From a virus, in the IMG/VR virus record IMGVR_UViG_3300033388_006813, positions 1 through 51,902 of that record: a stretch of 51,902 nt of DNA. One strand, written 5' to 3'. Below, in pieces: positions 10,001 through 30,400 of this stretch. Within the stretch, counting starts at the first letter, position 1. Each line of letters begins with the position of its first letter. The notes below the pieces were generated by a model. That model worked only from the letters and a program-made list of their open reading frames with translations. It had not been told where the DNA came from and made no database searches. Both the position numbers and the translations under genes were made by a program.

Positions 10001-10642
10001 ATGACAAAAAAATATAATTTGAAAAAGAAGGCATCGGACACAGAGAGTATTACGGATAAGACTATTAAAAAAAATAGAAATGAAATGGATATCTCTAATG
10101 AAAAACTAGGAACAACAGAGAAGAATATCAATCTAAGTCTTCCGATAAAAAACAAAGATAATACTGTTCCATTTAATGTTCAATTAGATGCTGCAAGGAA
10201 GAACAAGATTGAGAGGCAGATTATAGAAGCTAAAATGGATGATAAAGAGGTTGCGTTTGGAACACAAAAAGATTCTATGATGGATATTAATGAAGAAACT
10301 AAAAAATATGTTGATAAAAAAGAAGCAGATTTTAAAGCAGCAGAGAAGGGTGCAAAATCAGATACTGCATTTTGGGATAAATATGTTGGAGTTAATTTAG
10401 AAGGTGAAAAAACAAAAGTAACTAAAAATATTCCAGATAGCGATACTCAATTACCTAACAAAGATGCAGCAGAAATAGAGGCAGTATTAAAAGATGCTGA
10501 TGCCATGATTTATCACATTTATGCTACAGCTCATTCTCAAGATAGAGATTTGAAAGATGAGGAAAAGCAACAGATCATAGATATAGAGAGTGGAAAAGCA
10601 AGATTTATGGCATCTAAGATGATTGAGCCAGTTAAAAGATAA
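10001..10642 (+). CDS. Unknown head-region protein with YNLKKKAS N-terminus
   Basis: 213 charged, mostly helical residues of no recognised family. I chose ATG 10001 rather than the TTG 15 nt upstream because GAGGGG at 9988-9993 is correctly placed for it. The N-terminus MTKKYNLKKKAS fits the short motif that recurs in this cluster (NWYKKAQ, FNLKKQAQ). Lys-rich and Glu-rich stretches and no membrane segment suggest an internal or scaffold-like head protein. It lies 73 nt after the terminase and 15 nt before the next start, probably in one transcript. Confidence 0.65.
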   Translation: MTKKYNLKKKASDTESITDKTIKKNRNEMDISNEKLGTTEKNINLSLPIKNKDNTVPFNVQLDAARKNKIERQIIEAKMDDKEVAFGTQKDSMMDINEETKKYVDKKEADFKAAEKGAKSDTAFWDKYVGVNLEGEKTKVTKNIPDSDTQLPNKDAAEIEAVLKDADAMIYHIYATAHSQDRDLKDEEKQQIIDIESGKARFMASKMIEPVKR

Positions 10643-10657
10643 TAAGGAGAAAGATTG

Positions 10658-10873
10658 ATGAATAATTGGTATAAAAAAGCACAAAGCATGTACAGAACGC
10701 ATGATAGATTTTTTTACAATATTAGTGTCGCCGTTTGGGTTCCAGAGGGTACAGGACAAGAAGAAGGATGGAATGTATTGAAAGAAAGATTGAAAAGGAT
10801 GTCTGGTCCATCAGAAATCGATACCCCAGGTATAAATGCTAATATTACTGTTGAAGGCATTGAGCAAGTCTAG
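10658..10873 (+). CDS. Small unknown protein starting MNNWYKKAQ
   Basis: 71 residues. ATG 10658 is preferred over the TTG one codon upstream because AAGGAGA (10643-10649) is correctly spaced for it. The N-terminus carries the recurrent NWYKKAQ motif. The rest (RFFYNISVAVWVPEGTG, WNVLKERLKRM) suggests a small alpha/beta fold, with no known family. The next gene starts 7 nt after the stop. Confidence 0.6.
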   Translation: MNNWYKKAQSMYRTHDRFFYNISVAVWVPEGTGQEEGWNVLKERLKRMSGPSEIDTPGINANITVEGIEQV

Positions 10874-10880
10874 GCGGATT

Positions 10881-11309
10881 ATGAATTGGTATAAAAAAAA
10901 TACTAAAATAGCATATACTCCAGGTGGAATGGAACCTGTCATGGACAAATATGACAAAGGTCATAAGCCACCTAGCACAAATCATAAAGAAGAATTTAAT
11001 GGCAAAGTAACTGCTAATCCATTTTTAGGAACTAATATAAGAGGAATAGATCATCACAGAGGTACTAGTCGATTAGAACCTGATGAAGATAAACAACAGA
11101 TTAGACAAATTCCTAGCGAACCAATATTGATGGATCAAGATCCTCCAACTGGAGAAGGTGTTAATAAGGAACAATTTGTTCCAGAAGAAGATAAAAAGCC
11201 AATGGGTGGAATTTCAAAAATGTTAGACAGAGGGGTATCACCTACTAGAAGAAATATTTATAAGAAGCTCAGGGAAGAGGCTTTATTTAGACCAATCAAT
11301 AGAATATAA
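10881..11309 (+). CDS. Unknown protein starting MNWYKKNTKIAY
   Basis: 142 residues, hydrophilic, Pro- and Gly-rich and probably largely disordered. ATG 10881 follows GGCGG closely; the longer possible reading begins inside the previous gene and is less likely. The N-terminus has NWYKK followed by KIAY, so both versions of the cluster motif are present. No catalytic signature is visible. It is probably a minor structural or internal protein. Confidence 0.6.
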   Translation: MNWYKKNTKIAYTPGGMEPVMDKYDKGHKPPSTNHKEEFNGKVTANPFLGTNIRGIDHHRGTSRLEPDEDKQQIRQIPSEPILMDQDPPTGEGVNKEQFVPEEDKKPMGGISKMLDRGVSPTRRNIYKKLREEALFRPINRI

Positions 11310-11382
11310 CCTTCCAATTTATAGATAATTACACAAAATGTCGATAGAAATGTAGATAATTAATTTTTTAAAGGAGAACATG

Positions 11383-12330: not shown

Positions 12331-12346
12331 GAAACGAGAAAATTAT

Positions 12347-13114: not shown

Positions 13115-13237
13115 AAGTCTTAAAAAATGGCTCTAAATAGAGCAAAATAAAATAAAAATGACAAAAAATATGGATAAAAGTAAGAACAGGAGAATGCTCA
13201 ATTAATAAGGTGTATAAAGAATTAGAGTCAATAAGAT

Positions 13238-13348
13238 ATGCGAAAAGAAAATAGAAATTGTCATGGACATCTCCATCATTTAGAGAGAGAGATAGAAGGA
13301 TGGCAACTATCGGAAGAGTGTTTGAATAATAAAGAAATTTATAAATGA
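13238..13348 (+). CDS. Possible 36-residue micro-gene overlapping the next start
   Basis: An ATG ORF of 36 codons (MRKENRNCHGHLHHLEREI...) ends in TGA, which overlaps the ATG of the next gene as ATGA, a common arrangement for translational coupling. It is His-rich at the front. Support is weak: no clear ribosome site, and the 230-nt region around it otherwise holds only very short frames. It may instead be a decayed gene or leader. Confidence 0.35.
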   Translation: MRKENRNCHGHLHHLEREIEGWQLSEECLNNKEIYK

Positions 13349-13905
13349 AGATTATAGAAACAAAAAAATACATTAAGATTGCTGAGACTCAAAAAGAGAA
13401 GGAAGATTTCTTTCATAAAAGAACTAATGAACATATTGAGAGAGTCCAAAATGCTGCTAAAAAGATAGTAGATAAACATAGTGAATATAGTGATCTTTTA
13501 GAACAAGTTAAGAACCATGATGCTAGTAAATTTGAAGAGCCAGAAATGACTCCATATATTGAATTGACTTGGTTGAAAAAGCAGGATCAGGGTGAAGATG
13601 GTGGTAAGGATATTGAGGAGGCGACTCTTCACCATATAAAAAATAATAAGCATCATCCTGAGTATCACAATAAAGAAAAAGCGAATATAGACAACACTAA
13701 TAGAGACAAATCAATAGAATGCATTGATGCGGATGAGATGGATGATATAAGCGTTGCAGAAATGGTAGCAGATTGGCAAGCAATGTCAGAAGAATTAAAA
13801 ACAAATACCTCCAGAGAATGGTATAATGATGTGAAAGATGTTAGATGGAGTTTTTCTGAAGAGCAAGATAAATTGATTGATAAATTATTAAAAGTATTTG
13901 AATAG
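13345..13905 (+). CDS. DUF5662-like HD-type phage protein
   Basis: 186 residues. The N-terminus MKIIETKKYIKIAET carries the cluster motif. The body has the ordered His/Asp pattern I know from DUF5662: NEHIERVQ, then KNHDASKF (about 56-63), EPEMTPY, then HHIKNNKHHPEYH (about 92-104), and near the end MDDISVAEMVADWQAMS. This pattern resembles an HD-fold metal site; DUF5662 proteins are common in phages and their activity is unproven. The gene is coupled to the micro-ORF by ATGA. Its head-cluster position plus the tag-like N-terminus raise the possibility that it is packaged in the capsid. Confidence 0.65.
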   Translation: MKIIETKKYIKIAETQKEKEDFFHKRTNEHIERVQNAAKKIVDKHSEYSDLLEQVKNHDASKFEEPEMTPYIELTWLKKQDQGEDGGKDIEEATLHHIKNNKHHPEYHNKEKANIDNTNRDKSIECIDADEMDDISVAEMVADWQAMSEELKTNTSREWYNDVKDVRWSFSEEQDKLIDKLLKVFE

Positions 13906-13913
13906 AGAATAAA

Positions 13914-14156
13914 ATGAAAATAATTTTATCAGAAAATAGAAAAAAGAAAAATAAGATAATCGAAAAATTAGCGGAGCTAGAGCATGAGCAGTGGATGAAG
14001 TGGGCGAAAGATATTTTAAAAACAGAAAACATAACAGAAGAAAGAGTTAAAAGATGGAAAGAGGAAAGTTTTAAACCTTATAAGGATTTGACAGAAGAAC
14101 AAAAAGATATGGATAGAGAGTGGGCAGAGAAAGTTTATAATATAATGACGAGGTAA
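13914..14156 (+). CDS. Small RyR-like domain phage protein
   Basis: 80 residues. The pattern LAELEHEQWMKWAKDIL, then RVKRWKEESFKPY, then LTEEQKDMDREWAEK resembles the small phage proteins related to the RyR repeat, which keep a His-x-x-Trp near the start, a Trp-Lys/Arg helix and a Leu-x-x-x-x-Lys-x-x-Asp-Arg end. Such proteins are widespread in phages, and their ligand is unknown. The start is 8 nt after the previous stop. Confidence 0.55.
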   Translation: MKIILSENRKKKNKIIEKLAELEHEQWMKWAKDILKTENITEERVKRWKEESFKPYKDLTEEQKDMDREWAEKVYNIMTR

Positions 14157-14159
14157 ATT

Positions 14160-14276
14160 ATGAGTGAAATGGAAATGGTAATATCTGTTAGTCAAACAGT
14201 AGAAGAAGGAAGAAGAATGTTAATGGAAAATATGGAAAACGATATTAGAGGGGCTTTTGAATATGAAAATAATTGA
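14160..14276 (+). CDS. Possible 38-residue micro-gene
   Basis: ATG 14160 begins 4 nt after the previous stop and the frame runs 38 codons (MSEMEMVISVSQTVEEGRRM...), Met- and Glu-rich, ending inside the start of the next gene (overlap 14263-14276). Tight packing supports it; there is no homology to cite and no strong ribosome site. Confidence 0.4.
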   Translation: MSEMEMVISVSQTVEEGRRMLMENMENDIRGAFEYENN

Positions 14277-14697
14277 AACAGAAAAATTTAAAAAATTGTC
14301 ACAGTTTGGACCAAGATATCATAATCCTGAAAAATTAGAAGGTCCAGAAGCAGAGATAGCTGGCACTGATATACAAGGTGCAGTTAATTATGCATTTGTC
14401 AAAGCTATGGTTGGTATGAATTTAGATGAGTTTAGCGAGTTTGAATCAGAAAGAATAAATCAAATTCTTGAAGAATTTAAGAATGATTTAAGGAAAGGAC
14501 CAGCTGATCCTGGTGTTGCAGAACAGCATATCTCTCAAGCAGAGGCTTTAAGAGATGATCCTCAAGGTCTTATGGGCTTCTTCAAACACAATTCTCCGAT
14601 ACCTGGATCTCATAGTGAATATTTAAGACAAGAAGATGGTAAACAACATCTTATGGGTAGAAACAGAATTGCATCTGCATCTAATAAGAAAGGGTAA
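14263..14697 (+). CDS. Unknown head-cluster protein starting MKIIETEKFKKLSQ
   Basis: 144 residues. ATG 14263 is chosen because AGAGGGG (14246-14252) sits 10 nt before it; a TTG two codons upstream is less likely. The N-terminus matches the MKIIET family of starts found at 13345, 15506 and 27122. The middle is helical (INQILEEFKNDLRKG) and the end is polar. There is no known family. It is probably part of the same packaged or internal set as its neighbours. Confidence 0.6.
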   Translation: MKIIETEKFKKLSQFGPRYHNPEKLEGPEAEIAGTDIQGAVNYAFVKAMVGMNLDEFSEFESERINQILEEFKNDLRKGPADPGVAEQHISQAEALRDDPQGLMGFFKHNSPIPGSHSEYLRQEDGKQHLMGRNRIASASNKKG

Positions 14698-14699
14698 CA

Positions 14700-15095
14700 A
14701 TGAGAAAAAATGCACAATCAATTTATGAGAGACTGTTGGAAATTATGCCACAGTTAAGAGTTAATATTATTAAAGGCAAAGACTATGTTGAGCCATCTAT
14801 TGCTAATTCTTTATTTTCTGTGTGGAGAACGGGTAAGTCTGGTTCTAATAATTCAACTTTTAAGAGACCAGTATCATTAGCTCATGATGATATTCAAAAA
14901 ATGAAATCTGCTGGATTGATAAGAGCAATAGGTGAGAATATAGAAATAACTGAAAAAGGACAAAAGGTTATTAAGATAATGATTTTGGGAGATGAGAGAT
15001 CTTCATTTGAAAATAATGATCTTATTATAGATTATAATCAGGCTTTGGATAATACAAAAGGTGTTAAAACTGCTTCTAAAAAAATGACTAAATAA
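14700..15095 (+). CDS. Unknown protein with winged-helix-like C-terminal half
   Basis: 131 residues beginning MRKNAQSIYERLLEIM, with NAQS similar to the KAQS seen at other starts. Residues about 60-100 (HDDIQKMKSAGLIRAI, then IEITEKGQKVIK) look like the end of a winged helix: recognition helix, then a beta-hairpin wing with the common ITEKG turn. That would suggest DNA or protein binding; I could not name a family. It ends VKTASKKMTK, another K-T-A tag-like piece. The start lies 2 nt after the previous stop. Confidence 0.55.
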   Translation: MRKNAQSIYERLLEIMPQLRVNIIKGKDYVEPSIANSLFSVWRTGKSGSNNSTFKRPVSLAHDDIQKMKSAGLIRAIGENIEITEKGQKVIKIMILGDERSSFENNDLIIDYNQALDNTKGVKTASKKMTK

Positions 15096-15505: not shown

Positions 15506-15868
15506 ATGAAAATTATTAAAACATCAAAGTATGTAAAGATAGCAGGAATTAATCAACAGTCAATAGATACAGCAATTCTTGGAATATCTATGGCTGCTAA
15601 AAGAGCTTTTGATCAACAATTCCCAGCATTAGATAAAGTTGGTGATATGTCACATAGAAATGAAAAAATAGATTATGAAATGATTTTAAACGCCAATAGT
15701 GAAATAGAATATATAACTGATTTGCAAAAATCTCATATAGGAACATTTGGAGATGGGTATTATGAGTCTTTAGAAAAAATACCTGCTTGGTTAAATCAGA
15801 TACAAGATCAACAAGAACTTGATGATCAGTTCTTTCAAAAACCATATATGAAAGATGAAAATGTTTAA
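15506..15868 (+). CDS. Unknown protein starting MKIIKTSKYVKIAG
   Basis: 120 residues. The N-terminal 14 residues are nearly the same as those of the genes at 13345 and 27122, while the remainder (QQSIDTAILGISMAAKRAF, ESLEKIPAWLNQ) is unrelated, so the tag appears to be a module. There is no known family. The last 14 nt overlap the next gene. Confidence 0.6.
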   Translation: MKIIKTSKYVKIAGINQQSIDTAILGISMAAKRAFDQQFPALDKVGDMSHRNEKIDYEMILNANSEIEYITDLQKSHIGTFGDGYYESLEKIPAWLNQIQDQQELDDQFFQKPYMKDENV

Positions 15869-16639: not shown

Positions 16640-18967
16640 ATGAAGAGAAGTTATATTAAAAATTGGTATAAAAGAGCACAAACTGTTTTCGATTATGATA
16701 AAGTAGATGCGTATGGGAATCCAGTTGCTGCTGATGTAGAGCAAATGTTGGCTGATTATAATGTTGAAGAAGATGAGGGAAGAATAACGCAGTATGAAGG
16801 AGTAGAGCAAGATAATCAGGAAACAGTTGAAAATTTAGAGCAGGAAAAAGATGATGCTCAATTTGAATTAGATGTTGATAGACCTTGGGAGCCACCAGAT
16901 ATAGATGAGAAAGCTCCTGACACAGGAAACAAAACAGAAGCATTAAAATATGCTATAGAGAATAGAAGAGTTTTAGAAATAATATATTCTCCTGCTGGGA
17001 GAATGAATAGAAAAATAAATTTTGGGAAAAGTATTAAAAGAGTTATTGAACCTCATAATATGTTCCAAGCTGGTAATGGGAATATTGTTGTGACAACATG
17101 GGACAGATCAGTAGGTAAGATAAGAGCTTTTATTGTTGATAGAATAATGAATATAATTTTCAGGAAGAAAGCTATAAGAAACCCATTTAAACAAAGACAA
17201 AGAGTTTTACCAAGTTATGAAAGAGGAAAAACCATGGCTAATAAAAATAATATGTTGACAAAAATATTGTCTAAAGAATCCGAAGATAGTGATAAGGGAT
17301 TTAATTTGAATAAAACAAAAAAGGCTGGAAATGGAAGTTACTCGTCTAAGAAAAGACAACAACAGGCGGTTGATAGATCCAGAGAACTTGGGAAGAGAAG
17401 ACAGAGATCGCAAGAAAATGAAAATAGATATCAGCATGCTAATCCTCCTGCTGAGACTCCTCCTGATGATTCTTCTTATAGCTTAGATAAAGCTCGTCAA
17501 CATGCGAGAGAGAGAGGAAGACAACTTATTGATAAAAGACAAAGAGCAGAAGAAAATGAGGAAAGATATCAACAACAAAATCCTAATAAATCTAGTGCAG
17601 ATAATTCATTAATAAAGATTGCATCAGAATTAGAAAGTAAAGGGTTGTCAAAAAGTTCTGAAGTCGTTAAAGAAGTTAATGATGTATTAAACCAAATAAA
17701 AGAATCACAGTATGTTGGATTTATGGGTCAGGCTATTAGGAATAGACGTTGTTGGGATAATTGCTATAGAAATAAAAGAACTTCTAAACCAGGAACATCT
17801 GCTCAGGAAGTGTGGTTTGAATGCTGGGGTGAATATCTTGAGTCTATGAAAGATTCTAAGAAATGGGATAAATATGCTTCTGTTGATGATATAGCAAAAG
17901 ATAAAAAATGGGATAAAAAATTTGCAGAAGAAGTTAATAATAAAATGAAGAAGGGAATGAGTCTTCCAGAATCTGTATATGATACATTCAATAAAGAAGC
18001 TGATAAATATGTGGACACTGTTATAGAGCAGGCTAGCAATTTAACAGAATTGGCAGTTGCTCTTAATAATAATGGGCAAAAAAAACTTGGAAAGAAAGTT
18101 GCAGCAGCTTCTAATGAGGTTCTAAAAGAGGCGCAGTTTTGGCAGGGAGTAGGTGATGCTGCAAGAGGTATTGGAGGAGATATAGCAAAAGGTTTTGGTA
18201 AGGCTAAAGATTGGGTAGGCAATAAGATGCAAGGATATAAAGAGCAAGGGAATGAAAGAAGAATAGACAAGATGATTGAGAATATTGCTAGCACTATTGA
18301 GCAGGCTAGAGGATTTATTGAGGGTCAATGGCAAGAGAATGTTACTAAGATTAATGGTCTAATGTCACAATTACAACAATACAGAGGTAATCCAAAAGTT
18401 GATAATGCTCTTCGAGCCTTGAGAACTTGGAATGCTAATATAAAAAGAGAAGCAATTGATACGGTATTAGCAGCATTAAGACAGGATTCTGATGGAGATG
18501 GTATTCCTGATGTTGCAGAAACTCCAGTGGCAGGAGATGTTGATGGAAGTGGCGTTGTAGAACAAGATGAAGCAGTAGGTGGAGGATTGCCAACAGCGCA
18601 TCAATCTCCAGATCAATCAGCCCCTATGACACCAGGAGCAGCACCAGCACCAGGAGCAGCGGACACTAATTTGCTTCTTCAGTATATTAGTGCAGATCCT
18701 AATTTGTCGAATATGATGAGTGCTCTTTCGGGAAAAGGAAGAACAAATCCAGCAGGGATAACTGCTTTGCAAAATGCTTTTCAACAGGCAGGAGTTGAGT
18801 TTAATGAAGCAAATAGAAAACAATTAATGTCAGATTATAGGAACTCTTTAAAGGGCCAACAGCCACAACAACAAGTGTATATGAGTCGAGATCCTAAAAG
18901 AGAGATATATGGTAAGTCCCTTCTCAGAAATATTTTGAATAAAAATAAAGGGATTTTAATAAATTAA
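16640..18967 (+). CDS. Large head-cluster protein with WYL-like domain and Ca-binding loop
   Basis: 775 residues. The N-terminus MKRSYIKNWYKRAQT carries the cluster motif. Residues about 100-178 resemble a WYL domain (ALKYAIENRRVLEIIYSP, RVIEPHNMFQAGNGN, AFIVDRIMNIIF). A second motif copy, FNLNKTKKAG, lies near residue 222. Two imperfect repeats follow: DRSRELGKRRQRSQENENR and ERGRQLIDKRQRAEENEER. Then come helical parts, DSDGDGIPD plus DVDGSG (calcium-loop like, about residue 618), and a Pro/Ala-rich linker. An in-frame ATG at 17234, just after the WYL-like part and preceded by AGAGGA, could make a shorter product of 577 residues. It may be a scaffold, core or packaged protein; the function is unproven. 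Confidence 0.6.
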   Translation: MKRSYIKNWYKRAQTVFDYDKVDAYGNPVAADVEQMLADYNVEEDEGRITQYEGVEQDNQETVENLEQEKDDAQFELDVDRPWEPPDIDEKAPDTGNKTEALKYAIENRRVLEIIYSPAGRMNRKINFGKSIKRVIEPHNMFQAGNGNIVVTTWDRSVGKIRAFIVDRIMNIIFRKKAIRNPFKQRQRVLPSYERGKTMANKNNMLTKILSKESEDSDKGFNLNKTKKAGNGSYSSKKRQQQAVDRSRELGKRRQRSQENENRYQHANPPAETPPDDSSYSLDKARQHARERGRQLIDKRQRAEENEERYQQQNPNKSSADNSLIKIASELESKGLSKSSEVVKEVNDVLNQIKESQYVGFMGQAIRNRRCWDNCYRNKRTSKPGTSAQEVWFECWGEYLESMKDSKKWDKYASVDDIAKDKKWDKKFAEEVNNKMKKGMSLPESVYDTFNKEADKYVDTVIEQASNLTELAVALNNNGQKKLGKKVAAASNEVLKEAQFWQGVGDAARGIGGDIAKGFGKAKDWVGNKMQGYKEQGNERRIDKMIENIASTIEQARGFIEGQWQENVTKINGLMSQLQQYRGNPKVDNALRALRTWNANIKREAIDTVLAALRQDSDGDGIPDVAETPVAGDVDGSGVVEQDEAVGGGLPTAHQSPDQSAPMTPGAAPAPGAADTNLLLQYISADPNLSNMMSALSGKGRTNPAGITALQNAFQQAGVEFNEANRKQLMSDYRNSLKGQQPQQQVYMSRDPKREIYGKSLLRNILNKNKGILIN

Positions 18968-20657: not shown

Positions 20658-21312
20658 AAAAATGTCAGATGAACATAAAATTGATTTCTTAGAATTAAAA
20701 AAATCAATAGAAACAAAAAAAGCACCTTCAGCAACTAATAAACCAACATTGAGACAAATTGCAGAAGAGCAAAAAGCAAAGAAATTATCTAGTAAAGATG
20801 ATGGATTAATGACATCTCATCATATCAGTTCCGCTAGGACAGGCGATATCTCTAATGAGGGTGGTCCTACTAAATTTACAAAGTCCGAATCATCTAATAC
20901 TATTTTTGATACTAATAAAAGTGATAGGTTAGCACAAGAGATAAATAATAAAACCAGAGTACAAAATGAAAAAGAAGAGATAGCTTCTAACAAAAGGATA
21001 GCAGAAAATAAAAGAATGAGTCAGTTGGCTGAAGTTTTGAGTAAAACAGAGCAGGCTAATGACTCAACAGTTTCGCCAGTAAGTAGATATAGTGGTAGTA
21101 ACTATTATTCTCCTAAAAATAATATGAGTATTTTTGATACTCAAGAATTTGAGAGACTTGCTGATAAAACATCTGGTGAAATAGTTTCTGAAGAGACTAT
21201 TCAAAGGAATGCTCAAAAAGATGAATCCTGGAAGGGTAATGATAAAACATTTTCTTCTAAAGATGTCATTAATAATTTATTTGATAATCTTACTATTAAG
21301 AAAGAAGAGTAA
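20650..21312 (+). CDS. Unknown hydrophilic protein, probably coiled or disordered
   Basis: 220 residues, rich in Lys, Glu, Ser and Asn. The phrases SNTIFDTNKSDRLAQEI and NMSIFDTQEFERLADKT are an imperfect internal repeat about 75 residues apart (IFDT, then RLA or ERLAD). No domain is known. It is overlapped by the previous gene, and its TAA shares an A with the next gene's ATG (TAATG), so translation is probably coupled. Confidence 0.55.
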   Translation: MIRKMSDEHKIDFLELKKSIETKKAPSATNKPTLRQIAEEQKAKKLSSKDDGLMTSHHISSARTGDISNEGGPTKFTKSESSNTIFDTNKSDRLAQEINNKTRVQNEKEEIASNKRIAENKRMSQLAEVLSKTEQANDSTVSPVSRYSGSNYYSPKNNMSIFDTQEFERLADKTSGEIVSEETIQRNAQKDESWKGNDKTFSSKDVINNLFDNLTIKKEE

Positions 21313-22583
21313 TGGCTTTTAATTTTAAAAAAAGAGCACAATTTAGAAATGCTGATTTTTTGAATCAAATGACTCAGGGGACTTATGGTCTTCCTGCTAA
21401 CGTTGATGCTATTAAAGCTCAGTATTTATGGAACAATGTTTATCAAAATAATTTAAGATTTAATAGTATACAGGAGATGGCTAGCGTGTTAGAGGCAGAT
21501 GGGATTGATAGAGAGTATGCGAATATGTCAAACCCTGAAGTAGTAGACAATGTTAAACAGCCAGCTGTAAATATTCAGAATGTTACTGATCAGTTGGAAG
21601 ATGTTTTAACTAGTACTAAATCATTTAATCTTAAAAAACAAGCACAGATTCCAATGCAACAAATGGCTCCACCACCACCGCAATTCCCAGATCCAGCTGA
21701 TTATCAGGCAGAGCAAATGGATCAGAGAAATCAGCAGATGGATCAATTACAACAGGTGTATCAACCATTACAATTCAATTTTGCTGATCATAATGAATTA
21801 AAAAATTATCTTGATCAGAAAGGGGAAAGAGGGAAAAGGGGTTTTAAAGAAGTGATACAAGATTTAAGTTATAATAAGGTTCCTGATTTAAAAGAAGCTA
21901 TAGAATATTATTATAAAATAAAAAAAGATGCTAAAAAAGGAGCTGCTACTCCTGAAGATCTTTTGGACTATGTTAATTCAGATATTTATAAATTATTGCC
22001 AGATAACTTGACAAGTGGAGGTGTTGTGTTGAGAAAGAATAGATCAGAGGTTCTAGATGCTATTAAAAAATTGGCTGAAAAGAACACTAAAAAGAAAGAA
22101 GTAAAATCTTTTAATATGAGTAAAACAGCACAACATAAAACACAAGAAAATGTTATTATGTATGGACCAGAGGAAGTTCGTAAAGTCGATCCATTCTTAA
22201 GACAACCAGTTTCTGATTGGCATATAGTAGAAAGAAATAAGGGTTTTGGTCTTGTAGTTGATGATGTGTGGAATATTGATTATGAAACAATTTGGCGTGA
22301 AAATATTATGGATAAGTATTATCGTCCATATAAAGATAAAGAAGGTAATTGGGTTGGTGGATATATTCAAAAAAGATTTGAAGTTGATAAAAATATTCCA
22401 GCTTCAAGTAATTTACAACTAAAACCAGGTCAGACGAGGAGACCAATTTTATCTGAATATGGAAATACAGAATCCAGGCTTCAAGCTGCAAGAGCAGCAG
22501 GAGATATAGCAGGAGCTAATGATATTTCAAAACCTTTTAATTGGAAAGAAGCTTCATCTAAAAAAAAAAGTTTGATAAAGTAG
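21312..22583 (+). CDS. Head-cluster protein with four FN-x-K-x-A motif copies; ends at an A10 run
   Basis: 423 residues. The motif occurs at the start (FNFKKRAQF), near residue 103 (SFNLKKQAQI), near residue 270 (SFNMSKTAQH) and near the end (PFNWKEASS), each at an apparent boundary between regions. This looks like processing sites or repeated tags. The last region (about 285-400, VSDWHIVERNKGFGLVVDDV) looks folded. The gene stops 12 nt after ten consecutive A at 22560-22569. A -1 shift on this run would continue into the zinc-ribbon frame at 22562-23083 through KKFDKVAYQPARD, which itself carries a motif copy. Zero-frame ends LIK. Confidence 0.65.
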   Translation: MAFNFKKRAQFRNADFLNQMTQGTYGLPANVDAIKAQYLWNNVYQNNLRFNSIQEMASVLEADGIDREYANMSNPEVVDNVKQPAVNIQNVTDQLEDVLTSTKSFNLKKQAQIPMQQMAPPPPQFPDPADYQAEQMDQRNQQMDQLQQVYQPLQFNFADHNELKNYLDQKGERGKRGFKEVIQDLSYNKVPDLKEAIEYYYKIKKDAKKGAATPEDLLDYVNSDIYKLLPDNLTSGGVVLRKNRSEVLDAIKKLAEKNTKKKEVKSFNMSKTAQHKTQENVIMYGPEEVRKVDPFLRQPVSDWHIVERNKGFGLVVDDVWNIDYETIWRENIMDKYYRPYKDKEGNWVGGYIQKRFEVDKNIPASSNLQLKPGQTRRPILSEYGNTESRLQAARAAGDIAGANDISKPFNWKEASSKKKSLIK

Positions 22584-23083
22584 CATATCAACCTGCTAGA
22601 GATATGCTTGATCCAGAATCAAATAATAATTCGAATTTTGTAAAGGATCCCTTTCAATTAGGGGATCCTTTTTCTAATTCTAAACCAATGACACCAAATG
22701 ATGACGAGTTGCATTGTAGTATTTGTGGTGGGACATTAAAAAATACTTTTCGATCAGGTGTAGATACATGTCCTAATTGTGGAACACCTAATTGTCAAAC
22801 ATATTCAAAAGGTCTTAAGCCTCATTGTAAGGATGAAAAAAATCCAAATAAAGGACCTAATCCAACATTCATACCTAAGACTGTTTTAAATGCTTCTTAT
22901 AATGCAAAAGAGGCTATGAAAAAAAATATACATATGGAGGGTGATGAAGATGTTTATACAACTGAATTCGATGCCTGTACAATGGAAAATGGGATAGATG
23001 ATGAAAGTAAAAAAACATTAAATGTCGATGATAGAAAAGATGAGGTTATGAAATCTTGTCTTGATTTAGAAATTGATGGTTAA
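22562..23083 (+). CDS. Zinc-ribbon protein or -1 frameshift extension of the preceding gene
   Basis: The frame opens at 22562 inside an A10 run; the first Met is at 22604 (159 residues from there) and has no good ribosome site. Residues after that Met include a four-Cys zinc ribbon: CSICG, then CPNCG 19 residues on. The segment before the Met (KKFDKVAYQPARD) reads like real protein and contains the cluster motif. I therefore favour expression as a fusion by -1 slippage on A AAA AAA, or a homopolymer error in the sequence. The zinc ribbon may be structural. Next comes the portal gene, 16 nt downstream. Confidence 0.6.
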   Translation, partial: KKKFDKVAYQPARDMLDPESNNNSNFVKDPFQLGDPFSNSKPMTPNDDELHCSICGGTLKNTFRSGVDTCPNCGTPNCQTYSKGLKPHCKDEKNPNKGPNPTFIPKTVLNASYNAKEAMKKNIHMEGDEDVYTTEFDACTMENGIDDESKKTLNVDDRKDEVMKSCLDLEIDG

Positions 23084-23099: not shown

Positions 23100-26000
23100 A
23101 TGGCTATTAAAATGAAAATTTCAGATGACTCACCAGAAAATAAAAGAAGAATGGTAGCAGCATCTGGAGCTTATACGGTTGAAGATCAAAAGATGTATAA
23201 AGGATTAGGATATCAAAATAGATTTTATGCTGGTGCGCAATCAGTAAGTATGCCTATCACAAAGAATGCACAATATGCTGGGTCTGGGGCAAATGTAGCA
23301 ATGACTCAACCTATGTTTTTCTCACCACTGCATACTCCTCAAAACTGGCAGATAGCTAGTAGAAGAAGAGAGATAATGCAATGGGCAAGATTTTATTACA
23401 TGAATGAGCCTAAGGTCGCGGCGGGCGTAGATTTTTATGCTAATTTTTCTATGAATGGATTTAAGTTAGAATGTAAAAATAAAAAAGTTTTAAAGTTTTA
23501 TGAAAAATTAGTTAAAGATATAGATATTGTTGAGAAATTAAATAGTATTAGTCATGAGTATTTTTTGTTGGGAGATGTTTTTCCTTTCTTAGAAATAACA
23601 TGCCCTCATTGCCAAAATAAAGGTTTTACTTCTGATGGAAAAATTTGTAATCATCCAGATGGTAATTTTAAATCTATTAAAGTTATGAATCCAGATTATA
23701 TCGAAGTTAAAGACAATCCTATTGCTAGCAACCCAGAATATTATTTAATTCCGGATGAAGAATTAAAATTAATTATTCAAAGAAGAGAACCAAGAAAGAT
23801 ATATGAAAGTCTTCCACAAAGATTTATAGATTTAGTTTCATCGGGACAGCCAATTCCATTATCTAGTAGAAGCATAAGTCATTTAAAACATAATGCTAGT
23901 GATTATGGTACATATGGAATCTCTATGCTTCAAAGATTATTTACTATTTTGGCATATAAAACTAAAATCATGACAGCCAATTGGATTATAGCTGAGAGAT
24001 TAATTCTTCCTATTCGTGTTGTAAAGGTAGGAGATAAAGACAGACCAGCTACAGAAGCTGATTTGCAAGATGTTGTTACTCAATTATCGGCAGTAGCTAA
24101 TGATCCTAATTTAACTGTTGTAACTCACCACGCATTTGACTATGAATGGCATGGAGCTAGTGGAAAAATTCATAATATAACACAAGAGTTAGAAGAAATT
24201 GGGAAAGAAATTTTAGATGGTTTAATGTTGAATCAAGCTATTCTTAATGGCGAAATGGCTGGATATTGTATGAGTGAAGATACTCTCACTCTTACCGATT
24301 CTGGTTTTAAGCATTATTGGGAGATAGATGAAACAAAAGATAAAATTGCTTGTTACAATGACCAAACTAAAAAAATAGAATATCATCTTCCTTATGAGAA
24401 AGTCGTTTATGATTATGAAGGAGAGATGATTCATTTTAATACTGATAAGATTGATATCTTAGTATCTCCTAATCATAGGATGTGGAGTGCTAAGAGAGGT
24501 TCTGATAAGTTTGAAATTATAAGAGCAGAGGACGTTAAGTCAAGAGCAAAATTTGTAGGTGCTGTTGATGGGTATGAGGGAGAATATTGCCCTTATGTTC
24601 AAATAGGAGCAGAACAATATAATATTTATGATTTTTGTAAATTAGCTGGGTATTATGTTTCTGAAGGATGGGTTAGAGAAGAAAAGAGAAAAATTAGGGC
24701 AAATAGATTTACGACTGTTGGCATAAGTCAATCAAAAGATGGTAAAGCCAGAGAAGATATTGAAAATATTTTTGACAATATGTTTAATACACATTGGAAG
24801 GAAGAAAACCAAGTATGTGTTCATAAGCCAGAATTAGCAGATTATTTGAGGAATAATTTTGGTAGAGGTTGTGTTAACAAAAAACTTTCACCTTTTGTAA
24901 AAAATCTTTCTACAGAATGTTTAGAAATAGTTTTAGACGCTATGGTAAATGGAGATGGTTGTGATAGAGAATATTTAGGAAGAAAGAATGGGAATAAATC
25001 TTATTATACTTCTAGCTATCAGTTAGCACAAGATTTTGCAGAGATAGCATTCAAATGTGGTTATGTTGTAAAGATTAGAGAATATAATAAAAAAGAATCA
25101 AAAGATAAAGTTTATTTTAACAAAAGAGGACATCAATATAAAACTAATCATCAACAATATGTTGTATATATTTCTAAGGGATTTAAGGGAAGAACTCCTA
25201 CTCTTTGTTCTAAATCTAAAAAATATGCAGGGAAAGAAATAATAAGAGAATCTTACGATGGCAAGATTTATTGTTTTTCTGTTCCTTATGAAAAATTTGT
25301 AACTATGAGAAATGGTATAGTTACTATTCAAGGAAATACATCGGCTCAGGTTGGTATTGAAGTTCTGATTAGAAGATTGGATAACTGGAGAAATAAATTA
25401 AAAGATTGGGTGGAGAAAAATATATTTGAACCAGTTGCTATGATGCAAGGTTTTGTTGATGAACAAGAAACTGAGGAGATGGGATATACTGTTTATTTAT
25501 ATCCTCAACTTATATGGAATGATTTACAGTTAAGAGATAAGACAAATAGGATACAAACTCTTATGCAGATGTATGATAAACAATTAGTATCTGCTCAGAC
25601 AGTATTAGAAGAACTTGATTTGGATTATGATTCAGAAGTCGAGAAAATAAGAAGTGAACAAGTGATGGCAACCGCTCAGGGTCAACTTGGCGGACCAATG
25701 GGGGGAGCAGGAAATCTAGGGACAATGGGAATGGGTGGGCCTATGCCTCCTCCAGGTGGCGGTCCTCCTGATGTAGCTGGTGAAGGGATGGGTGCTCCAG
25801 GAATGGGTGCTCCAGCTCCAGGTGGAGGAATGGGTGCTCCAGCTCCAGGTGGAGGAATGGGCGCTCCAGCTCCAGGTGGAGGAATGGGTGCTGCTGCTGG
25901 TGGAATGCCTATAATAGGGAAGAGAGGATCTAAATCAGTAGCTGAACAGCAAGAAGAGGAAACTCCACCACCTCAAATGATAAAACTTACAAAGTTAGAA

Positions 26001-26486
26001 CAAAAAATGTATAAAACATTATTGTCTATGAAAATACCTTATGCATTATTTGGGCAATATTCTGTTAATTTACCGGGAGAAGAAAGGCCATTTTCTTTAG
26101 ATTTTGCTTATCCAAAGGTAGGTGTTGGAATTGAAGTTGATGGAGCTATCTGGCATCAAAGAGAAGATTTTCAACAGAGAGATATGAACAGAGATCAAAA
26201 GTTGGCTAATGTTGGATGGAGAATATTAAGATTTAGAGAAGATGCTGTTGAAGAACAAATAGATGCTGTGAGAGATGTTATTTATAAAAATCTTATTGAA
26301 GCAGAAAAAACTACGAAAAAATCTGCTGAAGATGATAGTATCATAAAATATGCTTCTACTGATATCAGTAGAAACTTTACACATGATTTTATAATAAATA
26401 ACGGTGAAGGTATCGGGTGTAATAGAAAAAATATTTCTAATAGTATTCAAGTTCTTTATATAGGGAATATCGAAAATGGAGATTAA
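23100..26486 (+). CDS. Portal protein with intein and C-terminal DUF559/Vsr-like nuclease domain
   Basis: 1128 residues, 771 after removal of the intein at residues 390-746. The portal part has the usual features of large-phage portals: REIMQWARFYYMNEPKVAAGVDFY, KVMNPDYIEV, DYGTYGISMLQRLF, and a long helical section after the intein (VLIRRLDNWRNKLKDWV). The portal forms the ring at the capsid vertex through which the terminase pumps DNA. After Gly/Ala/Pro/Met repeats (about 880-935), residues about 960-1062 look like a DUF559/Vsr-type PD-(D/E)XK nuclease: SLDFAYP with D1001, GIEVDGAIWH with E1012 and D1014, RDQKLANVGWRILRF. N-terminal ITKNAQYAG resembles the cluster motif. Ribosome site AGGAAGGAAA. 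The fusion of a portal with this domain is very unusual to me. Confidence 0.85.
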   Translation: MAIKMKISDDSPENKRRMVAASGAYTVEDQKMYKGLGYQNRFYAGAQSVSMPITKNAQYAGSGANVAMTQPMFFSPLHTPQNWQIASRRREIMQWARFYYMNEPKVAAGVDFYANFSMNGFKLECKNKKVLKFYEKLVKDIDIVEKLNSISHEYFLLGDVFPFLEITCPHCQNKGFTSDGKICNHPDGNFKSIKVMNPDYIEVKDNPIASNPEYYLIPDEELKLIIQRREPRKIYESLPQRFIDLVSSGQPIPLSSRSISHLKHNASDYGTYGISMLQRLFTILAYKTKIMTANWIIAERLILPIRVVKVGDKDRPATEADLQDVVTQLSAVANDPNLTVVTHHAFDYEWHGASGKIHNITQELEEIGKEILDGLMLNQAILNGEMAGYCMSEDTLTLTDSGFKHYWEIDETKDKIACYNDQTKKIEYHLPYEKVVYDYEGEMIHFNTDKIDILVSPNHRMWSAKRGSDKFEIIRAEDVKSRAKFVGAVDGYEGEYCPYVQIGAEQYNIYDFCKLAGYYVSEGWVREEKRKIRANRFTTVGISQSKDGKAREDIENIFDNMFNTHWKEENQVCVHKPELADYLRNNFGRGCVNKKLSPFVKNLSTECLEIVLDAMVNGDGCDREYLGRKNGNKSYYTSSYQLAQDFAEIAFKCGYVVKIREYNKKESKDKVYFNKRGHQYKTNHQQYVVYISKGFKGRTPTLCSKSKKYAGKEIIRESYDGKIYCFSVPYEKFVTMRNGIVTIQGNTSAQVGIEVLIRRLDNWRNKLKDWVEKNIFEPVAMMQGFVDEQETEEMGYTVYLYPQLIWNDLQLRDKTNRIQTLMQMYDKQLVSAQTVLEELDLDYDSEVEKIRSEQVMATAQGQLGGPMGGAGNLGTMGMGGPMPPPGGGPPDVAGEGMGAPGMGAPAPGGGMGAPAPGGGMGAPAPGGGMGAAAGGMPIIGKRGSKSVAEQQEEETPPPQMIKLTKLEQKMYKTLLSMKIPYALFGQYSVNLPGEERPFSLDFAYPKVGVGIEVDGAIWHQREDFQQRDMNRDQKLANVGWRILRFREDAVEEQIDAVRDVIYKNLIEAEKTTKKSAEDDSIIKYASTDISRNFTHDFIINNGEGIGCNRKNISNSIQVLYIGNIENGD
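24267..25337 (+). mobile_element. Intein with LAGLIDADG endonuclease, in portal
   Basis: 357 residues. Block A starts at Cys (CMSEDTLTLTDSGFK). A block B-like ILVSPNHRMWS follows. The endonuclease part has two LAGLIDADG helices (KLAGYYVSEGW and LDAMVNGDGC). Blocks F and G are IYCFSVPYEKFVTMRNG and VTIQGN, with Thr as the first residue of the C-extein. The penultimate residue is Gly rather than the usual His. Joined exteins read GEMAGY to TSAQVG. Splicing is inferred. Confidence 0.9.
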
Positions 26487-26886
26487 AACAGCAGGTAGAA
26501 AAAGAATTAAAGATCGAGGAATAAAATGGGAACAAAGATTCCATGAAAGATCTGAGAAATTAAGAGAACGTTTTAATAAAACAATAGGACCTTTGGCTTA
26601 TATAAGATGGGAAGGTCATGATTATACAACTGATTCTGATTATTTTATTATAGTTGGGCCATCTCTTACTAAAGAAATGAAGAAAAGATTTTTTGCGGGA
26701 ATTAAAAAATTACCAGATGATCCAAAAGCTAAAGTTTATGCTCCTGCTGGAGAATATTTTTTTAGCTCAGTAGCCGCTCTCAGTCATGCTGTTGAGAAGT
26801 GGGGAATAAAGTTTCCAAGAGGTGCTCCTAATTATACCCTAGACGATTTGGCTGATGTTGAAATACCTAGGCACGTAAAGGGTTAA
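26476..26886 (+). CDS. Unknown protein after portal
   Basis: 136 residues, overlapping the portal end by 11 nt. It starts MEIKTAGRKRIKDRG (basic, with a K-T-A piece). A compact alpha/beta middle follows (YTTDSDYFIIVGPSLTKEMK, VYAPAGEYFFSSVAALSHAV). The pattern of a small DNA-end or head-completion protein is possible by position, but I recognise no family. Confidence 0.55.
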   Translation: MEIKTAGRKRIKDRGIKWEQRFHERSEKLRERFNKTIGPLAYIRWEGHDYTTDSDYFIIVGPSLTKEMKKRFFAGIKKLPDDPKAKVYAPAGEYFFSSVAALSHAVEKWGIKFPRGAPNYTLDDLADVEIPRHVKG

Positions 26887-26891
26887 ATATA

Positions 26892-26915
26892 AATAGAGGA
26901 TTTTTTATCCCTATT
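26892..26915 (+). other. Intergenic hairpin
   Basis: AATAG and GGAT pair with ATCC and CTATT around a T-rich loop, with one bulged A. It lies just after the stop at 26886. No following T-run, so it may be an RNA processing or stability element rather than a terminator. Confidence 0.35.
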
Positions 26916-26951
26916 CTGAATATAAAAAGATAGTGTTTTTGGAGATATATC

Positions 26952-27122
26952 ATGATACTTAAATGTGGACAAAAAGATAATAAAAATTATACTTTTGGTG
27001 TGAGAACTGAGCAAGTAAAAGAAGCTATTAAAGATATAAAAACAGCTTTTTGTCCTTGCTGCGGAAAAATGATTGTTATTGGAAATTCCAAATACTGCTC
27101 TCGCTGTGGGGAGGAATTATAG
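26952..27122 (+). CDS. Small double zinc-knuckle (zinc ribbon) protein
   Basis: 56 residues, ATG after GGAG with 7-nt spacing. Two CxxC pairs (CPCCG and CSRCG) in the second half form a complete zinc ribbon; another Cys is near the N-terminus (KCGQKD). Small zinc ribbons of this kind are common in large phages and are often nucleic-acid or protein binders. The stop TAG overlaps the GTG start of the next gene by one base. Confidence 0.7.
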   Translation: MILKCGQKDNKNYTFGVRTEQVKEAIKDIKTAFCPCCGKMIVIGNSKYCSRCGEEL

Positions 27123-27469
27123 TGAAAATTATAAGAACAGCAAAATATGCTAATACATTTGAAGGATATGATCCTTATACCGTTGATTTTACTAAAGAAA
27201 GAGCAAAAGCAAAAGTAACAGATACAGATTCTTTGTTTAATGCTTTAAGTGATGCTATTGAAGCTATTAAAACCCCTAGTGCTAATGAGGGAAAATATTA
27301 CGACCAAGCATCTGTTTATAGAGCAGAATTAACTAGAAGAGGATATTCTCCCGAAGAGCAAGATAAAAGATTAGAAAAAATTCCAAGTCTCCATACAAAA
27401 CCAATGAGAGATTCTACGCCTACCACAGATTATCCTGAACTTGGAGATGCTACACTTGGAGCTTTTTAA
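27122..27469 (+). CDS. Unknown protein starting (V)KIIRTAKYAN
   Basis: 115 residues from GTG 27122, chosen because GGGGAGG (27108-27114) lies 7 nt before it; the longer reading would begin inside the zinc-ribbon gene. The N-terminus KIIRTAKYANTFEGYD again fits the shared tag, followed by an unrelated body that is helical (DSLFNALSDAIEAI, YRAELTRRGY). No family is known. It sits directly before the protease gene. Confidence 0.6.
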   Translation: MKIIRTAKYANTFEGYDPYTVDFTKERAKAKVTDTDSLFNALSDAIEAIKTPSANEGKYYDQASVYRAELTRRGYSPEEQDKRLEKIPSLHTKPMRDSTPTTDYPELGDATLGAF

Positions 27470-27493
27470 AAATAATTTGATAAGGAAAATAAA

Positions 27494-30400
27494 ATGGCAA
27501 TACATAAAATAGCAACATTTTCATATCGATGCTCAGTAGAAGCTTTAAATAAGCCGAAAGGTTGGGAAATCTATAATCTACCTAACAAAATTAAAACAGC
27601 ATCTAAAACTTCTAATAGTGAAGACTTAGGTGGATTTGATTTAAAAGAAGCTACATCTAAACACCCAGATCATTTGTATATAAAAATCTTTGCAATTAAG
27701 AAAGATGAGCCAAATGATAATGGAGATGCATTTGATGCGACTCAATTAAAGAAAGCTGCTCCTACCTTTGTTGGAGTACCACTCTTTACTAATCACCAAA
27801 ATGATGATGTTGAAAAATCAAGAGGGGAGTGTGTCCATTCTTGGTATGATAAAGAAGAAGGTGGTATCTATATTATCGGTAGAGTAGATAAAGTAGCTTA
27901 TCCAAAATTGGCAAGAGGAATAGAAGAGGGATATATATCAGGAACTAGTATGGGGTGTTTTTTGGGGCATAATAGGGTCTTAATGGCAGATTCTAGTTAT
28001 AAGTATATATACGATATTAAAAAAGGTGATGAAGTTATAACTCATAAGGGCAGAGTGAGAAAAGTTAAAAATCTTCAAAGACATGAAGACAAAACTAATG
28101 ATTTGATTTATAAAATAAAAGTTGAAGGTTTGTCTAATGAGATTTGTGCTACAAAAGAACATCCATTTTATGTCCTACAAGAACAAACTAAATGTTATAT
28201 TACAGGACAAGATATCGGTGTTCCTAAGTCTATGAGAAATAGATATAGAAGAAGGACTAAGGGAGGAGTTTACCAACAAGAAGAATATAAAATTGCTTTA
28301 AAAAATGGTGAATTAGATCAGTTCGATTTTGAATGGAAAAAATCAGAAGACCTCAAAGAAGGAGATATGGTTTCTTTTCCCATTTCTAAAGAAATTGTTG
28401 AAGATTCCGATGCTACATCTGACAAAGCGAGGTTAATAGGTTATTTTTTAGCAGAAGGTAGTTATCTTAAATATAAGGGTAATAGAGTTGCTGTAGAATT
28501 TAATTTTTGTTTATCAAAAGAAAAAGATACTTTAGGAAAAGAAGTTATAGGTTTATTAAGAAAAGTCTTTGATGGGACATTAGAACCAAAAATACAAGAA
28601 AGACCCGATAGAGATATTCTTATGATCCGTTTATATGGTAGAGATGTCGCTCAGTGGTTCTTTAATTATTGTGGGGAATATTCTCATACAAAAACATTAA
28701 ATAAAAAATGTTTATTTTGGGATCCAGAAATTCAAAAACATATTTTAGCTGCGTGGATAAATGGAGATGGAACTTGTAGAAATATTTATGCTCAGAATGG
28801 AAAATTATATCAAAATATTAGTGGGACAACTTGTTCTGAGACCCTACATAATCAAATGAAATTTATTACATCTAGATTAGGGATATATTCGACGACTGAA
28901 TATATAAAAGAAAGAGCGATAAAAAATGGGAAAAAACCATATTGGATTTTAGTTTTTGGGTGTAAGGAATCTCAAAAATTAAACGAAGTATTAGGTATTG
29001 ATAGAATAGTAGAGGGAGAATATAGAGATTCTTGGTTTAGGCAAGCAGATGATTATATTGTAATGCCTATTAAAAAAATTGAGAAAGAATATAATACAGA
29101 ACCTGTTTACAATATAGAAGTAGAGGAAGATCATTCTTATATCGTAGAAGGTGTTGTTGTAAAAAATTGTTCTGTAGAATATAGCCTCTGTTCAGTTTGT
29201 CACAATATGGCAAATACATCAGATGAGTATTGTACTCACGTTTCTAATAGAAAAAATAGAAAATATAATGGCAGTATAAACTGTTCTTATCATCAGAGCA
29301 AAACAGATACAGATGAAAAATGCCCATTGTGTGGATGTGAGAAAGAAGAAAGTAAAAGTATAAAACATGCAGAACAGATGATTTATGAACATAATTATGG
29401 ATTGAAATTTATTGAAAATTCATTTGTTGTCAACCCAGCATGTCATGAGTGCGGGGTTACTTGTGTTCTTCATGTTCCAGAGCTTCAGAAAAAGGTTGCT
29501 GAGTTTTCTAAAGTTATAAATAGATTAGTTAAAGACGCTAGTAGCGAATTTACTAAAGAATCAGCAACTGCTAAAGCTATTGAGAAATTAGGAGGGGTTA
29601 ATGAAATTAACTCTCTTAAGAGTAGCATGAATGAGATGGAAATGGTTGTTAAAAGTATGTTGAAACAAAAAGATAATGTTTCAATGGAATATGTTTCTGA
29701 TCTAGTTAAGGCTATGGCAGATGTTCAGGGAATTTTAGATGAGCTTGTTGAGATGGGCTATGCAGCGTTGCCATCTCCACCAGTAACGGCAGGTGAAGAG
29801 ACTGAAGTGCCAGCACCATTCCCAGAACCAGTACAAACCCCTGAGCCGCAAATGGTTGCTCCAGGAGGTGGATCTAGCTCCCAAGAGGACCTTGGAGGGC
29901 TAGGAAATGTAACTCTTCCTCAGAAATCTTCAAATAAAAAAGAGGATTTTTCTAAAATAAGTGAAAATGTAAGTAATAAGGTATCGTCTTTGAAGCAAAG
30001 AGTGCATAAAATACAAGAAAAACAAAATAATAATGAAATAGGAGCAATTATGGCTACTGATAAAACCACAAAAACAGCAGCGGGAACTGAAAATCTAGAA
30101 GTGATTACGGAGAAGCAATTGGAGAAGAAACAGGAAAATCTTCACCCCAGAACAGAAACCGTTTATGAAAGTATTACTGAAAGTAAAGAACAGATTGGCG
30201 GAACAGAGCAATCTAACGATACTACTAGTGATAGTCCTCAAGTTCGACTTGGAACATATGAGACAACTACCGAAGATCAACTTAAATCAGAAAGTGCTCT
30301 GGGTAGTGCTATAACTCATTTTGTTGAATACCCAGATGTTATTACAGAAAAACAATGGGATGATTTTAGCCGAGATATTGCTGGTGATTTGCCAGAAGAT

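What the first reader, a model, noticed from the sequence alone, without database searches (positions are those of the whole stretch)
10001..30100. Short KKA/KIA motif shared by many unrelated head-cluster proteins
YNLKKKAS, NWYKKAQS, NWYKKNTKIAY, KYIKIAET, KFKKLSQ, KYVKIAG, NWYKRAQT, FNLNKTKKAG, FNFKKRAQ, SFNLKKQAQ, SFNMSKTAQ, PFNWKEAS, KFDKVAYQ, KYANTFEG and KIATFS occur in at least ten genes between the terminase and the protease. Most are within the first 15 residues, but some are at internal domain borders, and the rest of each protein is unrelated. This is what a capsid-targeting tag or a recognition site of the prohead protease encoded next door would look like, and it could mark a set of proteins packaged into the head.
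Basis: partly seen in the sequence, partly recalled or inferred. Interest (0 to 1): 0.82.

Follow-up and report, generated by a model that had tools for sequence, protein, structure and literature searches.

The report
Capsid address tag of huge phages
A short sequence at the start of many otherwise unrelated proteins of a group of very large bacterial viruses looks like an address label that sends them into the virus head, is cut off by the head protease, and so marks the proteins the virus probably injects into its host.

Summary
Between terminase and protease, 13 of 23 genes carry hydrophobic-K-x-[AS] in residues 2-20 (shuffles 3.8); the bodies are mutually unrelated. Internal sites number 19 (shuffles 3.8), with none in the window's other 16 genes. 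In relatives the core ends a tag that varies by lineage: MNWYKKAQ here, MWYKxA in G002/G004, MKRLIKK[AS] in Bacillus phage G (23 N-terminal, 1 internal). Exact MNWYKKAQ occurs in 7 contigs of 2.9 million; all 7 carry this group's capsid protein. The protease has a T4 gp21/herpes assemblin fold. Its disordered prodomain keeps K-x-A near residue 7 and an invariant A38 in K-T-A-S; the portal has matching sites. Tagged proteins include ADP-ribosyltransferases, polynucleotide kinases, acetyltransferases and HicA, but none of 46 surveyed phage G replication/nucleotide/NAD genes. Best reading: a capsid-targeting sequence working like that of T4, cleaved after K-x-A, marking head-packaged, probably injected proteins. 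It is not a sequence relative of the T4 signal. Packaging and cleavage are inferred, not shown.

The parts
10013..10036 (+). N-terminal tag YNLKKKAS of gene 10001-10642
   Evidence: G001 orthologue begins MEKFNLSKKAS
10664..10684 (+). N-terminal tag NWYKKAQ of gene 10658-10873
10884..10916 (+). N-terminal tag NWYKKNTKIAY of gene 10881-11309 (start corrected from 10836)
13345..13383 (+). N-terminal tag MKIIETKKYIKIA of gene 13345-13905; a relative, L214, has MKIIKTAKYIKIS on the same protein
14263..14304 (+). N-terminal tag MKIIETEKFKKLSQ
14700..14720 (+). short N-terminal tag MRKNAQS
15506..15547 (+). N-terminal tag MKIIKTSKYVKIAG
16661..16681 (+). N-terminal tag NWYKRAQ of a 775-aa WYL-domain protein (16640-18967)
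17609..17626 (+). internal site LIKIAS where homology to G002/G004 proteins begins
21318..21341 (+). N-terminal tag FNFKKRAQ of a 423-aa core/scaffold-like protein
21621..21647 (+). internal site SFNLKKQAQ
22110..22133 (+). internal site FNMSKTAQ; conserved as FNLTKTAQ/FNLKKIAQ in L046 and L053
22542..22556 (+). C-terminal site WKEAS
23256..23273 (+). portal N-terminal site ITKNAQ, conserved just before the portal core; K-M-A-S at the like place in phage G
26340..26357 (+). portal C-terminal site IIKYAS
26482..26496 (+). N-terminal tag IKTAG of gene 26476-26886; orthologues begin with FNLSKQAG, YNLNKVAG, FNLLKFAS
27122..27166 (+). N-terminal tag (M)KIIRTAKYANTFEG, GTG start
27494..27517 (+). 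protease prodomain site 1, MAIHKIAT (MxxxKxA in orthologues)
27590..27604 (+). protease prodomain site 2, IKTAS (its A is invariant in 38 orthologues including phage G gp19)
27494..34279 (+). head maturation protease (assemblin/T4 gp21 fold) fused to a long C-terminal region; interrupted by an intein at about 27956-29167
34921..35793 (+). major capsid protein that defines the phage group (54% identity to phage G gp27); its MALNKTG start resembles the tag only weakly

Best explanation
The motif is a capsid-targeting propeptide plus cleavage signal, the functional counterpart of the T4 capsid-targeting sequence in phage-G-type huge phages. The N-terminal 8-14 residues hold an aromatic or hydrophobic, basic, lineage-specific address (NWYKKA.., MKIIxTxKYxKIA.., KRLIKKA..), which would bind the prohead core and bring the protein into the head. 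The address ends in K-x-[AS], after which the assemblin-type prohead protease would cut (most likely after the A or S, with S, Q, T or G following). The same K-x-A-[SQ] sites, used internally, would release the protease from its own prodomain, trim the portal, and chop the core/scaffold proteins. Tagged proteins made elsewhere in the genome are thus cargo: matured, left in the head, and probably injected with the DNA as early host-takeover or anti-defence effectors. Shown by sequence: the tag's N-terminal placement, modularity and clade restriction, the shared core, its conservation in the protease and portal, and the protease fold. Inferred: cleavage, packaging and injection.
For: Cluster enrichment and unrelated bodies. 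Phage G tag 23 N-terminal vs 1 internal, p=5e-25, pattern written after inspection. Untargeted motif search finds [KS]RLxK[K][AS] as the top N-terminal motif of phage G (LL 192 vs 107-111 in shuffles) and WYK[LK]A[QN] as the top one in G002 and G004 (for G004 at width 7, LL 125 vs 104-111). Exact MNWYKKAQ: 9 matches in 7 contigs of 2.9 million, all 7 with this capsid protein. Protease prodomain: K-x-[AS] in the first 12 residues in 55/66 unique orthologues (shuffled 18, max 25); [KR]-x-A before the domain in 63/66 (shuffled 13, max 22); A38 invariant. Both sites lie in stretches of pLDDT<50, outside the folded domain. T4 gp21 is the top PDB match, then herpesvirus proteases. Internal sites: G001 head 5.0x rest, G004 8.4x, phage G 3.4x. 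Tag added onto or swapped between homologues: G001|163 MNWYKQAKN vs G002|224 MKTIKTSSFEKLTEKD, homology starting after the tag; phage G 338 tagged vs paralogues 537 and 566 untagged. Seven of 11 ART-like phage G genes are tagged (p=6e-8), while the KptA-like RNA-repair ART is not. Nine neighbouring unrelated genes in L067 begin with or near NWYK[KR]A.
Against: No proteomic or N-terminal data could be consulted; the phage G virion mass spectrometry paper is not held. K-x-A alone is weak and common. In the 548-kb relative G001 the untargeted search ranked paralogue families above the tag, though W[YFL]K.[AS] was 9 N-terminal vs 0.2 expected. Depletion in replication genes is only marginal (p=0.057). 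Several phage G tagged ARTs are paralogues (phrog_13493), so they are not independent events. The Foldseek match is moderate (E 1.2e-3, TM 0.26/0.48). Not all head genes carry a clear tag.
Confidence: 0.76

Rival explanations
1. Cleavage site only: K-x-A is the prohead protease recognition sequence, and the proteins reach the head through other parts of their structure. The upstream W/Y/RL residues are just subsite preferences.
For: The most conserved shared part is K-x-A itself. It recurs internally in the protease, portal and core proteins, where no targeting is needed.
Against: The upstream residues are fixed within a lineage and placed at the N-terminus of scattered genes (NWYKKAQ, MKRLIKK), more than internal sites need. 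Phage G's N-terminal RLxKK differs from its own internal KIAS/KTAA sites. Small enzymes with no other shared part carry the tag.
Confidence: 0.13
2. Targeting only: the tag docks proteins on the core or the portal and is not cut.
For: In SPN3US most head proteins are not cleaved (PMC10052503).
Against: The tag core coincides with the conserved sites at the protease prodomain border (A38 invariant) and the portal border.
Confidence: 0.05
3. An N-terminal address to another place, such as the membrane, a phage nucleus or the host nucleoid.
For: Short basic-aromatic N-termini can be such signals in general (own knowledge).
Against: Only 1 of 67 tagged proteins has a hydrophobic stretch in residues 6-45 (untagged: 162 of 2228). 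The tag is concentrated at head genes next to the protease (phage G 5/20, p=0.001), and the core recurs inside head proteins.
Confidence: 0.04
4. Chance: lysine-rich starts of AT-rich phage genes read as a motif.
For: Phage N-termini are K-rich, and K-x-[AS] alone is expected in about 7 of 23 genes.
Against: Composition-preserving shuffles and the clade-restricted exact match in 2.9 million contigs.
Confidence: 0.02

Closest known systems
T4 capsid-targeting sequence (IPI, IPII, IPIII, Alt) with prohead protease gp21
   Same: Short N-terminal element shared by proteins with unrelated bodies; encoded with an assemblin-fold protease; cargo includes ADP-ribosyltransferases; address and cleavage parts in one decapeptide (in IPIII, targeting mainly at residues 4 and 7, processing at 8 and 10; PMC9026906).
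   Different: Cleavage core K-x-[AS] in place of a T4-type site ending in E; no detectable sequence relation; tag varies by lineage; dozens of tagged genes scattered over 330-550 kb genomes.
phiKZ/SPN3US head propeptides (prohead protease gp245, A-x-E)
   Same: Giant phage; portal, protease and internal proteins cut at repeated short motifs; propeptides proposed to act like the T4 signal; gp53 and gp54 share an identical 15-residue N-terminus (PMC5694885, PMC10052503).
   Different: Those propeptides are mostly over 100 residues and cut after (S/A)-x-E; here they are 8-14 residues with K-x-A.
P1 DarB N-terminal packaging signal
   Same: The N-terminal 30 residues suffice to package a reporter (PMC9024508).
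   Different: No consensus shared by the Dar proteins; no K-x-A core reported.
Polyvalent proteins and head-packaged ARTs of phages
   Same: Overlapping predicted effector domains (ART, ParB-like, peptidoglycan enzymes); phage G was already noted to encode at least 10 ARTs (PMC9503650, PMC5512222).
   Different: Packaging there was inferred from gene fusion or neighbourhood; here it is read from a tag on stand-alone proteins.

Membership tests
T4-type capsid-targeting sequence system | Short (about 10-20 aa) N-terminal element shared by otherwise unrelated proteins | tested here: met
T4-type capsid-targeting sequence system | Assemblin/gp21-fold prohead protease encoded with the head genes | tested here: met
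T4-type capsid-targeting sequence system | Sequence of the T4 signal and cleavage after a motif ending in E | tested here: not met
   Consensus is K-x-[AS], no E at the cut position
T4-type capsid-targeting sequence system | Propeptide removed by the prohead protease in the head | not testable with these tools
   Only indirect: K-x-A at the protease prodomain and portal borders
T4-type capsid-targeting sequence system | Tagged proteins are inside virions and ejected | not testable with these tools
   Phage G virion proteomics paper not held
phiKZ/SPN3US propeptide system | Long propeptides cut after (S/A)-x-E | tested here: not met
   motif from PMC10052503
Secretory signal peptide or membrane anchor | Hydrophobic stretch after a basic N-terminus | tested here: not met
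   1 of 67 tagged vs 162 of 2228 untagged

The most novel reading that the evidence does not exclude
Phage-G-type huge phages use an assemblin protease of K-x-A specificity with a lineage-specific N-terminal address. Any gene that acquires the 8-14 residue tag becomes virion cargo. Reading the tag therefore lists, genome by genome, the set of proteins injected at the start of infection (ADP-ribosyltransferases, 2H-like proteins, polynucleotide kinases, acetyltransferases, HicA-like toxins and many unknowns), and different lineages keep different, mutually foreign addresses.
Probability: 0.58. Interest if true: 0.8.

Novelty: new variant of a known kind. Interest (0 to 1): 0.68.

Why it matters
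Most proteins of huge phages have no known function, and which of them enter the host with the DNA is unknown. A tag readable from sequence gives a testable list of injected proteins in phage G and its uncultured relatives. It separates likely early effectors (tagged ARTs) from housekeeping ones (untagged KptA), gives a predicted cleavage specificity for a new branch of assemblin proteases, and suggests a short tag for loading proteins into very large heads. Papers found here describe the T4, SPN3US and P1 signals and note the many ARTs of phage G; none of those read mentions this tag.

Tried and rejected
Untargeted motif search on G001 and G005 ranked zinc-finger CxxC and large paralogue families (QTPDYIP, DDYQGxS) first, so it is not independent support there. 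A pattern for the MKIIxTxKY tag gave no excess over shuffles outside the window phage; that tag is used by only some relatives (L012, L015, L031, L033, L214). The capsid protein start (MALNKTG, MAIDKRA) was considered as a further site and left open: K5 is conserved but what follows varies. MKRLIKK as a pattern in all viral contigs also picks up plain signal peptides (MKRLIKKAAIGMVAFFVVAASGPVFA), so it is not specific by itself. The two papers most likely to mention such a tag (jumbo-phage overview, polyvalent proteins) were searched for it without result.
Full report
WHAT THE WINDOW IS. The window is a 51.9-kb fragment of a huge phage. Its capsid protein (34921-35793) is 54% identical to that of Bacillus phage G and 93% identical to that of a 548-kb uncultured relative, here called G001. 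The order is terminase, about 20 small genes, portal (with an intein-like LAGLIDADG insert and a nuclease-like tail), prohead protease (2261 aa with an intein), decoration-like protein, capsid protein, then a CRISPR-Cas type I locus and tail genes.

CHECK OF THE OBSERVATION. All quoted peptides exist. With hand-checked starts, 13 of 23 cluster genes have hydrophobic-K-x-[AS] in residues 2-20 against 3.8 expected from shuffling the same residues, and 2 of 16 genes elsewhere. After removal of the first 22 residues no two cluster proteins are similar. Internal hydrophobic-K-x-A-[SQG] sites number 19 in the cluster (3.8 expected, max 9 in 300 shuffles) and 0 in the other 16 genes.

WHOLE GENOMES. 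I read further contigs of the group in full (G001 548 kb, G002 494 kb, G005 476 kb, G004 334 kb) and phage G (497.5 kb). In phage G the tag is [KS]RLxK[K][AS], typically MKRLIKKAS: 23 N-terminal against 1 internal match (p=5e-25; the pattern was written after seeing it). An untargeted search finds the same motif as the top N-terminal motif of phage G. In G002 and G004 the untargeted search returns WYK[LK]A[NQ] first. In G001, W[YFL]K.[AS] occurs 9 times at N-termini where 0.2 is expected, but paralogue families outrank it in the untargeted search.

CLADE RESTRICTION. Scanning 2.9 million viral contigs for every codon spelling of MNWYKKAQ gave 9 matches in 7 contigs, and all 7 contigs carry this group's capsid protein. 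The looser MNWYKK pattern gave 22 contigs, 13 with the capsid protein; several of the rest are tiny open frames (MNWYKKAMQIV-stop) or fragments.

MODULARITY. In homologous pairs, similarity often starts just after the tag. G001|163 (MNWYKQAKN-LPGGLADKK) and G002|224 (MKTIKTSSFEKLTEKDLI-PGGLADNK) are homologues with different tags. Phage G gene 338 (MRRLIKKSNASFFHGT) has paralogues 537 and 566 that start directly at the domain. L067 holds a row of nine neighbouring genes with NWYK[KR]A at or near the start and unrelated bodies.

WHAT IS TAGGED. Pfam on 63 tagged proteins gives acetyltransferases (4), AAA_33 kinases (3), UvrD helicases (2), ART-PolyVal, HicA toxin, ParB-N, a SLOG protein, nucleoside deoxyribosyltransferase-like, WYL and SLT transglycosylase. 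A length-matched untagged sample gives mainly nucleotide metabolism, replication and endonucleases. By motif, tagged proteins also include ART-like (YHGT, HHTS) and 2H-like (HHMTI, HVTVIYG) proteins (motif reading, not a domain search). In phage G, 7 of 11 ART-like genes are tagged (p=6e-8), but they are partly paralogues, and the annotated KptA RNA-repair gene is not tagged. Of 46 annotated replication, nucleotide, RNA-repair or NAD genes in 200 kb of phage G, none is tagged; of the other 226 genes, 15 are (p=0.057).

THE PROTEASE. Its domain is found in 14 of 14 records tested, including phage G gp19. The predicted structure of the G001 protein (37 orthologues, mean pLDDT 75.5) matches T4 gp21 first (E 1.2e-3, probability 1.00) and then herpesvirus assemblins. 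H103 and S154 are invariant, as expected for catalytic residues (assignment inferred). The first about 43 residues are predicted disordered (pLDDT<50 at 1-22 and 28-43) and hold two conserved sites in an otherwise variable stretch: MxxxKxA at the start and K-T-A-S with invariant A38, just before the folded domain. This is the pattern of a self-cleaved prodomain. The portal has a conserved [IL]TK-x-AQ just before its core (RKMAS at the like place in phage G) and IKYAS near its C-terminus. Internal sites of this kind are 5.0, 8.4 and 3.4 times denser in the head clusters of G001, G004 and phage G than in the rest of each genome (overlapping matches could be counted twice there, unique counts for the window are).

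MECHANISM. Published work on T4: internal proteins and Alt have 10-20 residue N-terminal capsid-targeting sequences that bind the prohead core and are cut off by gp21 (PMC7411985, PMC5694885). In IPIII targeting lies mainly at residues 4 and 7 and processing at 8 and 10 (PMC9026906). Foreign proteins carrying the signal are packaged and delivered into cells. The tag found here has the same anatomy: an upstream aromatic or basic part, fixed within a lineage, followed by the K-x-[AS] core that also occurs at protease, portal and core-protein borders. I therefore propose an address plus cleavage signal, with cutting after A or S. Cargo would stay in the head and be injected. Cleavage, packaging and injection are inferences; no proteomic data were available.

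KNOWN OR NEW. It works like the T4 signal but fails one membership feature that could be tested, the sequence and the E-ending cleavage site, so it is filed as a variant of a known kind and not as a member of the T4 family. It also differs from the long (S/A)-x-E propeptides of phiKZ-type phages (PMC5694885, PMC10052503). Head packaging of phage ARTs was predicted from context, and phage G was noted for its many ARTs (PMC9503650), but no tag was found mentioned in the papers read.

LIMITS. Gene starts were called by a simple script and some are wrong. The tag patterns were written after inspection, although untargeted searches recover them in three genomes. K-x-A alone is too weak to predict a cut. 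Tags in G005 and in the more distant LR745208, Tunturi_5 and Rctr197k were not worked out.

Noticed in passing
window 22550-22604: A run of ten A's lies between the core-like gene 21312-22583 and the next ORF. The frame after it reads KKKFDKVAYQPARDM with no start codon, which suggests a programmed frameshift or transcriptional slippage, or an assembly error; in G001 the two parts are also separate genes.
   Followed up: partly
window 38646-47131: A type I CRISPR-Cas gene set (Cas5/Cas8/Cas7/Cas3-like by eye) with a large repeat array (DVSHSNMRVDYN when read in frame) lies between the capsid gene and the tail genes of the phage.
   Followed up: no
window 23100-26486 and 27494-34279: Both the portal and the prohead protease carry inserts with LAGLIDADG domains (inteins), the protease one at SMG-C next to the probable catalytic serine; G001 lacks the protease intein.
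   Followed up: partly
L067, minus strand, about residues 1500-2750 of the reverse frames: A row of nine neighbouring unrelated genes with NWYK[KR]A at or near the start looks like a cargo cassette: polynucleotide kinase, ParB-like, ART-like and unknown proteins.
   Followed up: partly
G005 (476-kb relative), about 202-236 kb and 290-300 kb: About 16 paralogous proteins begin KIFDDYQGxSIKINGxCYKxxGET and continue into serine-rich stretches (SSSSES); similar serine-rich repeats occur in the window at 329-6777.
   Followed up: no
G001 (548-kb relative), 126-133 kb and 278-280 kb: A family of seven paralogues starting with AYLVQTPDYIPDYVKxLEDMGRDVYI, function unknown.
   Followed up: no
phage G NC_023719 81748-82587 and 163172-163849: Two tagged ART-like proteins also end in tag-like peptides (KKIKRLKKFNK, SSRLRRVKRG); T4 Alt is likewise cut at both ends (PMC9026906).
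   Followed up: no
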